From an uncultured Halomonas sp. (GTDB lineage: Bacteria > Pseudomonadota > Gammaproteobacteria > Pseudomonadales > Halomonadaceae): a stretch of 64,000 nt of DNA. The notes below the pieces were generated by a model. It searched no databases and had not been told where the DNA came from. It worked only from the letters and a program-made list of their open reading frames with translations. The stretch spans positions 62,001 through 126,000 of the forward strand of contig NZ_CAMPKE010000004.1 of the NCBI RefSeq assembly GCF_946887195.1. Reading direction: 5' to 3'. The position numbers and the translations under genes are program-made. Numbering within the stretch: the first letter of the stretch is position 1; each line of letters starts with the position of its first letter. Below, piece after piece: positions 48,447 to 53,251 of this stretch.

Positions 48447-49085
48447 ATGAACGCCAAAAAACGTTTCGAAATTTTCGCGCGGCTGCGAGAACACAATCCC
48501 GAGCCGACCACCGAGCTCAACTGGACCAGCCCGTTCGAGTTGCTCACCGCGGTGCTGCTCTCGGCCCAGGCCACCGATGTCGGGGTCAACAAGGCCATGG
48601 CTCGGCTGTTTCCGGTCGCCAATACCCCCGAAGCGATCATCGAGCTGGGCATCGATGGTCTCAAGGAGCACATCAAGACCATCGGCCTTTACAACACCAA
48701 GGCGGAAAACCTGATGAAGACCTGCCACCTGCTGCTCGAGCGGCACGGCGGCGAGGTGCCACAAACCCGCGCCGAACTGGAAGCGCTACCCGGCGTGGGC
48801 CGCAAGACCGCCAACGTGATTCTCAATACCGCCTTCGGGCAGGCCACCATGGCGGTGGATACGCATATCTTCCGCGTCTCCAACCGCACCCGCATCGCGC
48901 CGGGCAAGAATGTCGTCGAGGTCGAGAACAAGCTGATGCGTCACGTGCCCAAGGAGTTCCTCAAGGACGCACACCACTGGCTGATCCTGCATGGCCGTTA
49001 TACCTGCGTGGCTCGCAAGCCACGTTGCGGTAGCTGTGTGATCGAGGATTTGTGCGAGTATCCTGACAAGACCGAGCCGTCTTGA
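48447..49085 (+). CDS. nth: Endonuclease III
   Basis: 212 residues (E. coli 211). DNA glycosylase/AP lyase for oxidised pyrimidines. Helix-hairpin-helix LPGVGRKTANVILNTAFG with the catalytic Lys, the catalytic Asp in AVDTHIFRVSNR, and the C-terminal 4Fe-4S motif C-x6-C-x2-C-x5-C in CVARKPRCGSCVIEDLC. The rsx-nth order is conserved in E. coli and Pseudomonas. Confidence 0.97.
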   Translation: MNAKKRFEIFARLREHNPEPTTELNWTSPFELLTAVLLSAQATDVGVNKAMARLFPVANTPEAIIELGIDGLKEHIKTIGLYNTKAENLMKTCHLLLERHGGEVPQTRAELEALPGVGRKTANVILNTAFGQATMAVDTHIFRVSNRTRIAPGKNVVEVENKLMRHVPKEFLKDAHHWLILHGRYTCVARKPRCGSCVIEDLCEYPDKTEPS

Positions 49086-49095
49086 CGGTTCGTGC

Positions 49096-50103
49096 CTAGA
49101 ACCCCAGCACTTCCAGATGGCTTGCCAGTTCATCGAGAATCTCGATGCCCTGCACATCGCTGGGCAATAGCGGCAGGCGTGGGCGCGGCAGGTGCGTCAG
49201 TTCGGAGTCGATACGCGCCAGATACACCGCCTCCTGCTCGCGGCGACGGCGCAGGAAATCGCCATCGGCATCGGCCGGTATCACCCGATTGACCAGGGCA
49301 CCGGCCACCGGAACATCCGCCGCCTCCAGCGCCGCCACGGCGCGTGCCGTCTCGAGTATCGGCAGGCGCTCGGGCGTCATCACGAACAGGAACACGCTCT
49401 CGTCGCGGTTCTCGATCCGCCGCCGCGCACGATGAAAAAGCCGCCGGCGATCGAGCAGCGTCTGAGCGACATCGCGCGTGCGCGAATCCAGCTCATCGAG
49501 GCCATCGCGCTCGGGATCGTCGAACGGCGTGTCGACACCGCGGCCACGCTTGGGCGTCAAATGCTTCAATACCTTGCCGAGTTCCTCGGATTTACGATTG
49601 TGCGCCAACAATCCATCGGTCCAGGCGGCCATGGCTTCGGGCAGCGTCAACAACCGTAGCGTGTGCCCGGTAGGCGCGGTGTCGAAGACGATCAGATCGT
49701 AGCGATCGTCGTCTTCGGTCATCAGCCGGGCCAGGCGCTCGAGCAGCGCCGCCTCCTGGGTGCCCGGCGCTTGGCGCGTCAGGCGCATCTGCCGCTCTAG
49801 CTCGGTCATCATCTCCGGCGCGGCATAACGGCGCATTTGCTGAGTGACACGCTTCAAATGGGCATCGACCTCGGCATCGGGATCGATCTCCATGGCATCC
49901 AGCCCCGGCAGCAACCGACGCGGCGCATCGCCCAGCTCGCGCTCGAAGACATCGCCCAGGCTGTGCGCCGGGTCGGTGGAAACCACCAGCACTCGCCGCC
50001 CACGGCGCGCCGCCAGCACGGCCAATGCAGCCGCCACCGTAGTCTTGCCCACGCCACCTTTACCGCCAACCCAGAGCAGTCGATGTTGCAATAGCTCTTT
50101 CAT
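49096..50103 (-). CDS. ArsA/Get3-family ATPase without cysteines
   Basis: 335 residues from ATG 50103. A single ArsA-type domain: P-loop GGKGGVGKTTVAAAL (about 12-26), STDPAHSLGDVF (signature after strand 2), and DTAPTGHTLRLLTLP (switch II), all typical of ArsA/Get3. The protein has no cysteine at all, so it has neither the arsenite-binding cysteines of ArsA nor the CXXC zinc motif of Get3. No arsenic genes are nearby. It lies downstream of a CstA-like carrier and a small CC-ending protein. A membrane-protein targeting or assembly role is plausible but unproven. Confidence 0.9.
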   Translation of the reverse strand: MKELLQHRLLWVGGKGGVGKTTVAAALAVLAARRGRRVLVVSTDPAHSLGDVFERELGDAPRRLLPGLDAMEIDPDAEVDAHLKRVTQQMRRYAAPEMMTELERQMRLTRQAPGTQEAALLERLARLMTEDDDRYDLIVFDTAPTGHTLRLLTLPEAMAAWTDGLLAHNRKSEELGKVLKHLTPKRGRGVDTPFDDPERDGLDELDSRTRDVAQTLLDRRRLFHRARRRIENRDESVFLFVMTPERLPILETARAVAALEAADVPVAGALVNRVIPADADGDFLRRRREQEAVYLARIDSELTHLPRPRLPLLPSDVQGIEILDELASHLEVLGF

Positions 50104-50148
50104 GCCCGACTCTTTTCCAAGCAATATTGTGCCGTCACTAGGTTCCCC

Positions 50149-50289
50149 AGAGCCTTTTCATGATCGTCATGAACGAAGGTGAGGCAAGGCGAAAACCGAC
50201 GAAGAAGCGGAGTTTACTATTGTAAATGAGCATTCTAAGGAGGGTTTCAACACAGCATCACCGAGTGCAGTAGATCATGGACAGGTTCT
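50149..50289. repeat. 141-bp imperfect palindromic element (MITE-like)
   Basis: Ends AGAGCCTTTTCATGATC (50149-50165) and the inverse of AGAACCTGTCCATGATC (50273-50289) match at 14 of 17 positions. The centre has a short palindrome (TTTAC..GTAAA). The right end runs into the TAA stop of the CC-star gene, as the 143-bp element does at 21326. I recall similar sequences in Halomonas intergenic DNA, but copy number cannot be seen here. It separates the CC-star gene from the ArsA-like gene. Confidence 0.6.
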
Positions 50290-50585
50290 TAACAGCAGCC
50301 GAAATGATCCAAAGGCGACCGCTCCATGCCCATCCGCAAGTGCCAGTCGTGAAATCGCTCCAGCATCAACGGCTGCAATTCCAGCGTGTAATAGGCCGCC
50401 GGATTGGGCATGCCCATCATTTCGGAAAACACCAGCAGCATGAACAAATCGTCCTCGTCGCGCCGCGCGCGGGCGATGGCGCTGCGATAACGTACCGAAT
50501 AGGCCTCCTCGGCGAAATAGCGGGCCTGGCCAAGCCAGGCTCGTATTCTTTCTCGCCGTGAATCGTGGCGGTCGTCATGCGCCAT
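50289..50585 (-). CDS. Small CC-terminal protein (cory-CC-star family, from memory)
   Basis: 98 residues from ATG 50585 (GAGG seven bases upstream). Acidic/basic helical protein: RAWLGQARYFAEEAYSVRYR, DEDDLFMLLVFSEMMGMPNP, AAYYTLELQPLMLERFHDWH, ending DHFGCC then stop. Two terminal cysteines immediately before the stop define a small family I recall from NCBI family names as cory-CC-star, found near ArsA-like ATPases. No signal or membrane helix is evident. It starts 14 bases after the CstA-like stop, so they are co-transcribed. The CC end could bind a metal or be modified. Confidence 0.8.
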   Translation of the reverse strand: MAHDDRHDSRRERIRAWLGQARYFAEEAYSVRYRSAIARARRDEDDLFMLLVFSEMMGMPNPAAYYTLELQPLMLERFHDWHLRMGMERSPLDHFGCC

Positions 50586-50598
50586 CGTCATGCCTCGC

Positions 50599-52272
50599 TC
50601 ATGATGGGTTGGTGACTTCGCCGCGCAAGCGCTTGAGCGTCGAGGCACATTCGAGCGCGACCAGAATCGAAGCGACCAGCACCACGATATCGAGTACCAG
50701 CAGGAAGATATTGCCCTGCTCGTAGAAGCTGCGCAGTTGCGCCAACAGGGCCCATAGCGTCATCACCACGACGAAAATCAGCGGCACCAGCGTGTACAGA
50801 ATGGGGCGTTTGCGGCGGACCAGCATCACGGTGATTACCAGCAGGGTCAGACCGGCCAGCAATTGATTGGTGGTCCCGAACAGCGGCCAGATGATCATCC
50901 CGCCAGAGCCATCGGCCCCGCCGGCACCAAACGCAAGAACCAGACAGGAGCCTACCGCCAGCAGGGTCGCGATGGCCGGGTTCTTCAGCCATTCCTGGTG
51001 ATAGATCTCGCCCCACTCCTGGAAGATATAGCGCTGCAGGCGCAAGCCGGTATCCATGGTGGTGCCGGCGAACAGCGCCGCCATCACCGTCAGTAGCGTC
51101 GCCGCGGTGGTCTCGGGCAAGCCGATACCGTTATTGATGATATAGGCGCCGCCTTCGACGAAGGCGTTGACACCGCCCTGCCCAAAGGCGCTATACATGG
51201 CTTGCCAATCGGCGAAACTGGCGAAACCCGCCGTTGCGGTGAGAATCGCCGCCAACGCCAGCATGCCTTCACCCACGGCGCCGAAGTAACCGACGAAACG
51301 CACGTCGGTTTCCTTGTTCAATTGCTTGGATGACGTGCCCGACGACACCAGGCCATGGAATCCGGAAATCGCGCCACAGGCAATGGTCACGAACAGTAGA
51401 GGGACCATCGATGGCGTACCCGCCGGCACATTGGTATTGAACATGGGAGCCAGTATCGTCGGATTGGAAAACAGCACCGCAACGTACAAAATGATCAAGC
51501 CGATGAACAACTGCAGGCCGTTGATGTAATCGCGCGGCTGCAGCAGCATCCATACCGGCAGCAGCGAAGCGGCCGCCGCATAACCGAATAGAATCAGAAT
51601 CCACAGTGCGTTGCCGGACACCCCCATGACCTCATCGGGCATTTGCAAGGGAATCGACGGCCCGATACCAATCAGCGCATACAGCGCAATCACGCCCACC
51701 ACCGACACCAGCATCAGGCTGGCCTTGCGCCGGTAGATCAACTGACCGATGACCAGGGCGACGGCAATCGCTCCCCACACGGGCACCACGGAACTCGGGA
51801 AATCCATCATCAGACCGGCGATGACCACGGCGAAGACAGCGTTGACCATCAACAGCAGCAGGAAAATGACGATCATGAAGATGCTACGGGCACGCTTGCC
51901 GACCACATCCCCGGTCAGCGCACCAACCGAGCGCGCCTTGTTGCGCACACTGGCCCAGATTGCCCCGGCATCGTGAATGCCAGCGAAGAATACCGTGCCC
52001 AGAATCACCCAAAGAAATGCCGGCAGCCAACCCCAGATGACTGCGATCGCCGGGCCGACGATCGGCGCCGCACCGGCGACCGAGGTGAAGTGGTGACCCC
52101 ATAGCACATAACGATTGGTCGGCACGAAATCGGTGCCATCCTCGAATTCATGGGCGGGGGTACGAAAATCGGGATCGAGGCGAAAGATCTTTTCAGCGAT
52201 GAATTTGGAATAGAACGCATAGCCCAACGCCAGCCCAGCCAAACCCAGCAGCATTACGACGATGGCATTCAT
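50599..52272 (-). CDS. CstA-family carrier (peptide/pyruvate transporter-like)
   Basis: 557 residues from ATG 52272 with AGGAGAGG five bases upstream. About 14-16 membrane helices. CstA-family segments: FVPTNRYVLWGHHFTSVAGAAPIVGPAIA, IFFAGIHDAG-like GTVFFAGIHDAGAIW, and LLFVTIACGAISGFHGLVSSGTSSKQ. Known relatives (CstA, BtsT) import peptides or pyruvate under carbon limitation. It is shorter than E. coli CstA (701 aa). It is followed by the CC-star gene and then the ArsA-like gene. Confidence 0.92.
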   Translation of the reverse strand: MNAIVVMLLGLAGLALGYAFYSKFIAEKIFRLDPDFRTPAHEFEDGTDFVPTNRYVLWGHHFTSVAGAAPIVGPAIAVIWGWLPAFLWVILGTVFFAGIHDAGAIWASVRNKARSVGALTGDVVGKRARSIFMIVIFLLLLMVNAVFAVVIAGLMMDFPSSVVPVWGAIAVALVIGQLIYRRKASLMLVSVVGVIALYALIGIGPSIPLQMPDEVMGVSGNALWILILFGYAAAASLLPVWMLLQPRDYINGLQLFIGLIILYVAVLFSNPTILAPMFNTNVPAGTPSMVPLLFVTIACGAISGFHGLVSSGTSSKQLNKETDVRFVGYFGAVGEGMLALAAILTATAGFASFADWQAMYSAFGQGGVNAFVEGGAYIINNGIGLPETTAATLLTVMAALFAGTTMDTGLRLQRYIFQEWGEIYHQEWLKNPAIATLLAVGSCLVLAFGAGGADGSGGMIIWPLFGTTNQLLAGLTLLVITVMLVRRKRPILYTLVPLIFVVVMTLWALLAQLRSFYEQGNIFLLVLDIVVLVASILVALECASTLKRLRGEVTNPS

Positions 52273-52468
52273 GAAGGCCTCTCCTTGCAGTCGCTTCTTA
52301 TCGTTACTCTGTGTCATTCTCCCCTGTATGTTATTGTTCTTTTTGAAGGTTCTAATCGACCCCGTTTCAAGATAGCCAAAGGTGAAGAATCGCGACAGGT
52401 TCGTCGGCTAATCAATTGTGTTGAGAGGCCATTATCGATACGAGCGCGTATCAGGTTGGAAACGACGA

Positions 52469-53251
52469 ATGACCGTTCACCTGCTGAAATATCTGGCATT
52501 GCCGCCACTGATCAACGTGCTGCTGATCGTGGCCGGCCTGCTGCTGCTCAAGCGCTGGCGCTGGTTGGGTAGCAGCCTGGTGGCCCTGGGGCTGATTGCA
52601 TTACTGGCATTATCCACGCCGCTGGCCAGCTATTGGCTACGTGTCGGCCTCGAGACCTATTCACCGCCTACGGCGGCGGAGCTGTCGCGTGCCGAGGCGA
52701 TCGTGATCCTGGGAGGCGGGCGGGATTATGTTGCGCCGGAATTCGGCTGGGGCGATGCGCCCAATAACGCGACCTGGCGCCGGCTGGCTTACGGTGCCTG
52801 GCTCGCTGATCGCAGCGATTTGCCGATTCTGGTGACCGGCGGCCGAATGCATGGCGAGATGCTTGCCGAAGCGACCTTGATGGCGAAGGCGCTGCGCCAG
52901 GTATTCGGACTCGAGGCGCACTGGATCGAAACCCGCAGCCGCACCACCGCCGAGAACGCACGCTACAGCGCGCCGCTACTGAAGGCCGATGGCATACGAA
53001 GCGTACTGCTGGTATCCCAAGCCTGGCATTTGCCCCGCGCGGTACCCGAATTCACGCGTATGGGTCTCGAGGTCATCCCCGCGCCGACCGACTTCGCCAG
53101 CCCACCACCGGCGAGCCTGCTTGCCTGGATACCGCAGGCTTATCACCTTCGCCACAGCGCACAAGCGTTACATGAATGGCTGGGGCGTGCGTTCTATGCA
53201 CTGCGCGCCTGGCTTGTCACGGATGAAACCGTCAACCCCGCCGATAGATGA
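52469..53251 (+). CDS. YdcF/SanA/ElyC-like DUF218 membrane protein
   Basis: 260 residues from ATG 52469. Two N-terminal membrane helices (about 10-30, 38-58) and a DUF218 domain: AIVILGGGRDYVAPEFG, ILVTGGRMHGE, and the signature ETRSRTTAENARYSAPLL. ElyC relatives influence lipid-II or envelope polysaccharide metabolism. Its 3' end overlaps the convergent repeat-protein gene by 20 bases. GGAAACGA is a modest ribosome-binding site. Confidence 0.88.
   Translation: MTVHLLKYLALPPLINVLLIVAGLLLLKRWRWLGSSLVALGLIALLALSTPLASYWLRVGLETYSPPTAAELSRAEAIVILGGGRDYVAPEFGWGDAPNNATWRRLAYGAWLADRSDLPILVTGGRMHGEMLAEATLMAKALRQVFGLEAHWIETRSRTTAENARYSAPLLKADGIRSVLLVSQAWHLPRAVPEFTRMGLEVIPAPTDFASPPPASLLAWIPQAYHLRHSAQALHEWLGRAFYALRAWLVTDETVNPADR

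What the first reader, a model, noticed from the sequence alone, without database searches (positions are those of the whole stretch)
49096..52272. CstA-like carrier, CC-ending small protein and a cysteine-free ArsA-like ATPase in one locus
The ArsA-like ATPase keeps P-loop and switch motifs but has no cysteine, so it cannot handle arsenite by the known mechanism or use the Get3 zinc clamp. Its neighbour is a 98-residue protein that ends exactly in CC. With a multi-span carrier beside them, a membrane-insertion or transport-control system is a reasonable guess. I know of no experimental description.
Basis: partly seen in the sequence, partly recalled or inferred. Interest (0 to 1): 0.7.

Follow-up and report, generated by a model that had tools for sequence, protein, structure and literature searches.

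The report
Carrier, CC-tailed helper, ArsA-like ATPase
A bacterial nutrient carrier of the CstA family sits with a tiny protein that ends in two cysteines and with an ATPase related to the arsenic pump, a gene trio noticed by computer in 2010 for which I found no bench test; the comparison here suggests that the two-cysteine tail serves the carrier rather than the ATPase.

Summary
On the minus strand, window 49096-52317 encodes a CstA carrier (572 aa; 557 from the inner ATG), a 98-aa protein ending CC, and a 335-aa single-domain ArsA/Get3-type ATPase without Cys. The small protein is NCBIfam NF041419, 'cory-CC-star'. The trio is no chance cluster: 79 of 80 named loci carry it in this order, as do 12 of 13 genomes with a hit over the cut-off in class and phylum draws (one of the 13 was the chosen centre). 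Castillo and Saier (2010, PMC2963123) already described CstA-CstX-ArsA operons and proposed ATP energization; I found no experiment. Added here: (1) the small protein has a near-fixed HxWH-x14-CC end; (2) other CstAs pair with YbdD/YjiX, which also end in CC (43 of 44) though no sequence homology shows, and E. coli needs YbdD for CstA pyruvate uptake (PMC5847655); so the CC tail seems to follow the carrier, not the ATPase; (3) the linked ATPases lack CxxC (0 of 92), and Get3-like membrane insertion is not supported. Best reading: a CC-tailed accessory subunit of a CstA importer, acted on by the ATPase.

The parts
50599..52272 (-). CstA-family carrier, short form, 557 aa from the inner ATG (572 aa if started at 52317)
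   Evidence: PF02554 473.7 bits; about 13 hydrophobic spans; upstream of the small gene in 79 of 80 loci
50289..50585 (-). 98-aa CC-ended small protein (cory-CC-star, NF041419; by order, size and organisms probably the CstX of Castillo and Saier)
   Evidence: NF041419 131.9 bits, cut-off 80; starts 13 nt after the carrier's stop
50340..50351 (-). HxWH motif of the small protein (H79 to H82)
   Evidence: coordinates checked; present in 240 of 240 listed relatives and 89 of 89 sequences of the loci set (window included; the two sets overlap); 16 residues to the C-terminus in 325 of 329
50292..50297 (-). the two terminal cysteine codons (C97, C98)
   Evidence: CC end in 236 of 240 relatives and in 88 of 88 locus proteins
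49096..50103 (-). single-domain ArsA/Get3-family ATPase, 335 aa, no Cys (possible TTG start at 50124)
50041..50067 (-). P-loop of the ATPase, residues 13-21 GGKGGVGKT
   Evidence: each position conserved at 97% or more in 93 sequences
50156..50273 (.). dispersed repeat of about 100-118 bp inside the 185-nt spacer between the small gene and the ATPase gene; not part of the system
   Evidence: 30 or 31 matches in each of 3 of 4 relatives searched; both strands fold better than all 200 shuffles

Best explanation
This is a three-part uptake system: a short-form CstA carrier, a cytosolic CC-ended accessory subunit that the carrier needs in order to work, and a single-domain ArsA/Get3-type ATPase that acts on the carrier-subunit pair. 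Shown here: gene order, co-occurrence, a near-invariant HxWH-x14-CC end, absence of conserved Cys in the ATPase, and association of CC-ended small proteins with CstA carriers even where no such ATPase is found. Inferred: that the small protein binds the carrier and is required for transport, by analogy with E. coli CstA plus YbdD. Inferred with less certainty: that ATP hydrolysis is used to assemble or recharge the subunit-carrier complex or to energize transport; the data do not separate these two.
For: Trio order in 79 of 80 named loci, and the 80th genome has CstA elsewhere. In the draws (274 and 350 genomes of the class of G001, 398 of its phylum, overlapping) 13 distinct genomes have the small protein over the cut-off; one, G001, was the centre and was chosen for having it. 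All 13 have a CstA beside it and 12 have the ATPase beside it (without G001: 12 and 11 of 12). Also on plasmids of Pseudochrobactrum and Paracoccus, and of Cytobacillus with one extra gene between (3 of 6 plasmid records viewed). The stop of the small gene overlaps the ATPase start by 10 nt in 12 of 92 loci, which suggests coupled translation. YbdD-type proteins: 22 of 274 genomes, the same 22 that have a full or nearly full match to the long CstA, adjacent in 20 of 22; adjacent in 22 of 22 in one order draw, its centre included; 43 of 44 end in CC. YbdD is required for full CstA-dependent pyruvate uptake in E. coli (PMC5847655, passages). CstA, CstX and ArsA trees largely match in PMC2963123.
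Against: No interaction or transport has been measured for the trio. One of 13 genomes (G176) has carrier and small protein but no such ATPase in its assembly (completeness not told), so the ATPase may be dispensable. Profile comparison gives no homology between the small protein and YbdD (probability 0.6%), so the functional transfer is by analogy. Nine of 42 CstA genomes in the class draw have a CstA with no CC-ended ORF of 45 aa or more beside it, two of them with carriers 42-44% identical to the window's, so not every CstA uses one. The AlphaFold2 model of the small protein is weak (pLDDT 71.9, pTM 0.38).
Confidence: 0.62

Rival explanations
1. ATP-energized pump: the ATPase dimer docks on CstA as ArsA does on ArsB and turns a secondary carrier into an ATP-driven one, with the small protein as the coupling link (the proposal of Castillo and Saier 2010).
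For: Tree agreement and operons in PMC2963123; intact nucleotide motifs; constant gene trio.
Against: E. coli CstA/YbdD takes up pyruvate without an ArsA-like gene beside it (PMC5847655); G176 has carrier and small protein without the ATPase; small CstA neighbours are CC-ended also where there is no ATPase to link.
Confidence: 0.3
2. Loading or assembly factor: two His and two Cys of the small protein form a metal or redox site (H79, H82, C97, C98), and the ATPase, like other chaperone NTPases of its class (SIMIBI, class name recalled), loads or inserts the finished subunit into CstA.
For: HxWH in 329 of 329 (overlapping sets) and 16-residue spacing in 325 of 329; YbdD/YjiX show two near-invariant His (43 of 44 each) and CC; E. 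coli btsT-yjiX is followed by yjiA, a P-loop GTPase gene.
Against: No metal tested; the tail is low-confidence in the model; yjiA lies beside 0 of 42 other YbdD-type genes checked, four of them with short flanks; invariant residues can also mean a docking tail.
Confidence: 0.25
3. Get3-like membrane insertion: the ATPase targets CstA or the small protein to the membrane.
Against: Segment between W161 and L216 polar in 92 of 92 (highest 13-residue mean 0.43; one archaeal TRC40 as comparator 0.62, a modest difference); small protein has no predicted membrane span; CstA has about 13 spans; no gene annotated as Get1/Get2 beside the trio in three plasmid loci.
Confidence: 0.1
4. Arsenic or metalloid resistance module.
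For: Family name only; a metal-sensitive regulator gene lies about 1.6 kb downstream of the ATPase gene in one locus (L115).
Against: No conserved Cys in the ATPase; no arsR, arsB or acr3 annotated beside it in three plasmid loci; PMC2963123 states that ars and cst operons do not mix.
Confidence: 0.02

Closest known systems
CstA-CstX-ArsA operons (Castillo and Saier 2010, PMC2963123)
   Same: Same three kinds of gene; single-domain ArsA of about 300-340 aa; includes Chromohalobacter, Alkalilimnicola, Idiomarina and Pseudomonas stutzeri.
   Different: For archaeal cluster 14 they call CstX a single-span protein; here no span is predicted. The text holds no YbdD, YjiX, 'vicinal' or 'C-terminal cysteine'. 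That CstX is NF041419 is inferred from order, size and organisms, not tested on their sequences.
E. coli CstA-YbdD and BtsT-YjiX (PF02554 with PF04328)
   Same: CstA-family carrier followed by a small protein ending in CC with two conserved His.
   Different: Long carrier (701 and 716 aa), 65-67-aa partner without detectable homology, no ArsA-like gene beside it.
ArsA-ArsB-ArsD arsenite pump
   Same: Carrier plus ArsA ATPase plus a small metallochaperone (ArsD, PMC2963123 section 17); that ArsD has cysteine pairs is recalled.
   Different: Two-domain ArsA with conserved Cys; ArsB is not a CstA; none of the arsenite features is met here.
Get3/TRC40 (archaeal 3zq6)
   Same: Single-domain fold and nucleotide motifs, 32-34% identity.
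   Different: No CxxC, polar client segment.
NCBIfam NF041419 cory-CC-star (also Pfam PF25952 in precomputed annotation)
   Same: Member, over the cut-off.
   Different: A name for which I found no described function; no paper in the library holds it.

Membership tests
CstA-CstX-ArsA system (PMC2963123) | cstA, a ~90-aa gene and a single-domain arsA together, no ars genes | tested here: met
CstA-CstX-ArsA system (PMC2963123) | CstX has one transmembrane segment (stated there for archaeal cluster 14) | tested here: inconclusive
   this protein: highest 19-residue Kyte-Doolittle mean 1.04; 0 of 240 relatives reach 1.6; archaeal CstX sequences were not examined
CstA-CstX-ArsA system (PMC2963123) | ATP-dependent transport function | not testable with these tools
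   no experiment found
NF041419 cory-CC-star | score over curated cut-off and CC end | tested here: met
   131.9 bits against 80; CC end
PF02554 CstA | score over gathering cut-off | tested here: met
   473.7 bits against 27
Arsenite-pump ArsA (TIGR04291) | score over 650 bits along a 565-position two-domain model | tested here: not met
   335 aa, 153.3 bits
Arsenite-pump ArsA (TIGR04291) | arsenite-binding cysteines | tested here: not met
   0 Cys
Get3/TRC40 tail-anchor targeting | family fold and nucleotide motifs (TIGR00345) | tested here: met
Get3/TRC40 tail-anchor targeting | CxxC zinc clamp | tested here: not met
   no Cys in the window protein; CxxC in 0 of 92 linked ATPases
Get3/TRC40 tail-anchor targeting | hydrophobic client-binding region | tested here: inconclusive
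   polar segment in 92 of 92, but part of that region is under pLDDT 50 in the model
YbdD/YjiX (PF04328) | sequence membership | tested here: not met
   no PF04328 match for 19 members at E 10; hhalign probability 0.6%
YbdD/YjiX (PF04328) | CC end, two conserved His, next to CstA (works-like features) | tested here: met

The most novel reading that the evidence does not exclude
Two families of tiny proteins that I cannot relate by sequence (cory-CC-star and YbdD/YjiX) have converged on the same design, two fixed histidines plus a C-terminal Cys-Cys, because CstA-type carriers need a detachable metal- or thiol-bearing subunit; in some systems a SIMIBI-class NTPase (the ArsA-like protein here, perhaps YjiA beside btsT-yjiX in E. 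coli) loads or recycles that subunit. This would be a new kind of transporter regulation.
Probability: 0.18. Interest if true: 0.75.

Novelty: new member of a known kind. Interest (0 to 1): 0.42.

Why it matters
It would tell what an orphan branch of the ArsA/Get3 ATPases does and why CstA carriers, reported to handle pyruvate and peptides, so often sit beside very small proteins ending in two cysteines. The comparison turns a vague association into a direct test: change the last two residues of E. coli YbdD or of the Halomonas small protein and measure uptake.

Tried and rejected
Homology of the small protein with YbdD/YjiX: tested by profile comparison, not shown (the small-protein alignment is shallow, Neff about 2, so a distant link is not excluded); Pfam scan at E 10 gave no PF04328 match.

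A general NTPase neighbour for YbdD-type genes, prompted by yjiA beside yjiX in E. coli: 0 of 42 other loci show it (22 class-draw loci; 20 further order-draw loci; four with about 1 kb or less downstream), so this parallel is not general.

The idea that every CstA has a CC-ended neighbour: false. In the class draw 42 of 274 genomes have PF02554: 22 with PF04328 matches, 3 more with a CC-ended ORF beside CstA pieces (G018, G075, G256), 6 with cory, 9 with no CC-ended ORF of 45 aa or more in the stretch fetched (two stretches end at a contig end), 2 contig-end fragments that cannot be judged (G205, G179).

Solved structures: for CstA and for the small-protein profile no match at E 1; YjiX gave three matches, at most 25 residues long, to proteins that are not CstA partners (PRDM9, TOX). 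Fold search with the small protein's model: nothing at E 0.001, and the model is too weak to trust. Haloarchaeal plasmid CstAs: no ArsA or CC gene annotated beside two of them; a third record has no annotation; a Butyrivibrio plasmid CstA has none annotated either. A weak NF041419 match in G776 (27.7 bits, under the cut-off, short contig, no CstA or CC-ended ORF found) was left out of the counts. L037 was left out of the client-segment count (0 residues in the segment). The four relatives without a CC end were not in the 80-sequence alignment. The ATPase search scored at most 7 candidates a genome, so it may miss copies. Rfam: nothing in 49000-53000.

Papers: PMC2963123 outline with abstract, sections 12, 17, 22, 27 and passages; PMC5847655, PMC10248533 and PMC6104027 passages only; PMC7730263 term search only (no ybdD, yjiX, ArsA or CstX found). 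All others: search listings.
Full report
What is there. On the minus strand the window encodes, in transcription order, a CstA-family carrier (stop at 50599; start 52272 or 52317), 13 nt later a 98-aa protein ending in CC (50289-50585), and after a 185-nt spacer a 335-aa ArsA/Get3-family ATPase (49096-50103). Neighbours are nth on one side and an ElyC-like DUF218 gene on the other. The closest named relative among the loci fetched is Modicisalibacter muralis (L007), with 94, 91 and 91% identity for carrier, small protein and ATPase. No whole genome is held for the window.

Families. Carrier: PF02554, 474 bits. ATPase: PF02374 and TIGR00345, but far under the arsenite-pump model TIGR04291 (153 bits, cut-off 650). 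Small protein: NF041419 'cory-CC-star', 131.9 bits. No paper in the library holds that name.

Co-occurrence. The exception, an Aquisalimonas MAG (L072), has the last two together and a CstA on another contig. Because those 80 are close relatives, I also used even draws around G001, the genome of L007, which was chosen because it has the trio. Its class (Gammaproteobacteria by recalled taxonomy; the tool names no group), 274 genomes: small protein 6, CstA 42, PF04328 22, ATPase query 13. A larger draw of the same class (350 genomes, overlapping, centred on G637) gave 9 matches, 8 over the cut-off. Phylum draw, 398 genomes: 7. Distinct genomes over the cut-off: 13, G001 included; all 13 have a CstA beside the small gene, 12 have the ATPase beside it. 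The exception, G176, has no full-length match of the ATPase family in its assembly. Of the 13 genomes with ATPase matches in the 274, 5 have a single-domain one beside the small gene, 1 (G018) has a distant single-domain protein elsewhere, and 7 have only longer proteins (500-1063 aa open frames); G254 has both kinds. The trio also lies on plasmids of two alphaproteobacterial genera, and of Cytobacillus with one extra small gene in between.

The small protein. 236 of 240 listed relatives from two searches end in CC; the four others look like single changes in the last two residues. All 88 proteins taken from loci end in CC. In 80 aligned sequences (chosen from the listed relatives; the four exceptions not among them) D46, F48, G58, P62, Y66, T67, E69, L70, P72, F78, H79, W81, H82, R84, G86, S90, P91, C97 and C98 never vary; more distant ones such as L090 keep HxWH and CC but not S90. 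HxWH is present in 329 of 329 sequences of two overlapping sets, with 16 residues to the end in 325. No membrane span is predicted. The AlphaFold2 model is a long helix, two shorter ones and a loose tail, pLDDT 71.9, pTM 0.38: too weak for a fold claim.

The parallel with YbdD/YjiX. The 22 PF04328 genomes in the class draw are the same 22 that have a full or nearly full match to the long CstA; 20 of 22 are adjacent, and 22 of 22 in an order draw of 81 genomes centred on one of them. 43 of 44 YbdD-type proteins, the two of E. coli included, end in CC (one ends PC), and two His are each kept in 43 of 44. In E. coli, deletion of ybdD lowered pyruvate uptake to 20% of wild type and of cstA to 13%, without additivity (PMC5847655, passages). 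Profile comparison shows no homology of the two small families. So two families that I cannot relate by sequence, with different ATPase company, share a carrier family and a CC end; the simplest reading is that the CC end serves the carrier. This is inference.

What is in print. Castillo and Saier (PMC2963123) listed 26 CstA-ArsA associations, 24 with CstX, found largely matching trees with a few exceptions, and proposed that ArsA energizes CstA through CstX; they noted that the three ArsA cysteines are not conserved in single-domain proteins. Their clusters 17 and 18 include Chromohalobacter and other likely relatives of this host. The text does not mention YbdD or YjiX. Searches for later work found none on the trio (20 of 44 papers listed, 19 of 19, none, 17 of 17); the library holds open-licence papers only.

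Verdict. A real, conserved gene trio, already described by comparison and, as far as I found, untested. The added value is the near-fixed HxWH-x14-CC module and the argument that it belongs to the carrier. What the ATPase does with it remains open between energization and assembly or loading.

Noticed in passing
window 50156-50273: A dispersed intergenic repeat of about 100-118 bp sits between the small gene and the ATPase gene; 31, 30 and 30 matches were found in the genomes of Modicisalibacter ilicicola, Halomonas sp. M20 and M. muralis (at most 40 candidates scored each), none in H. icarae. It folds into long imperfect hairpins on both strands and has no Rfam match.
   Followed up: partly
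12 of 92 loci, e.g. L087, L088, L113: The small gene's stop overlaps the ATPase start by exactly 10 nt; where the ATPase starts M-L-L (seen e.g. in L087, L088 and L113), the same letters can encode Cys-Cys-stop and Met-Leu-Leu.
   Followed up: partly
protein database hits: Many cory-CC-star proteins are named 'DNA helicase' in public records, which their size (mostly 85-110 aa) and family do not support.
   Followed up: no
L187 (E. coli K-12): btsT-yjiX-yjiA places a CstA-family carrier, a CC-ended protein and a P-loop GTPase side by side, a possible analogue of the trio; not seen beside 42 other YbdD-type genes.
   Followed up: yes
hit lists: Many of the hosts named are halophiles, alkaliphiles or marine bacteria (Halomonas, Oceanobacillus, Halobacillus, Idiomarina; lifestyles recalled), which may point to a sodium or salt link; the lists are ranked by similarity, so this is not a test.
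   Followed up: no
L115 3630-3917: In Cytobacillus spongiae an unnamed 95-aa gene lies between cstA and the CC-ended gene.
   Followed up: no
L146-L154: Nine short or divergent CstA genes in the class draw have no CC-ended partner ORF of 45 aa or more in the stretch fetched; they may work alone or with something else.
   Followed up: partly
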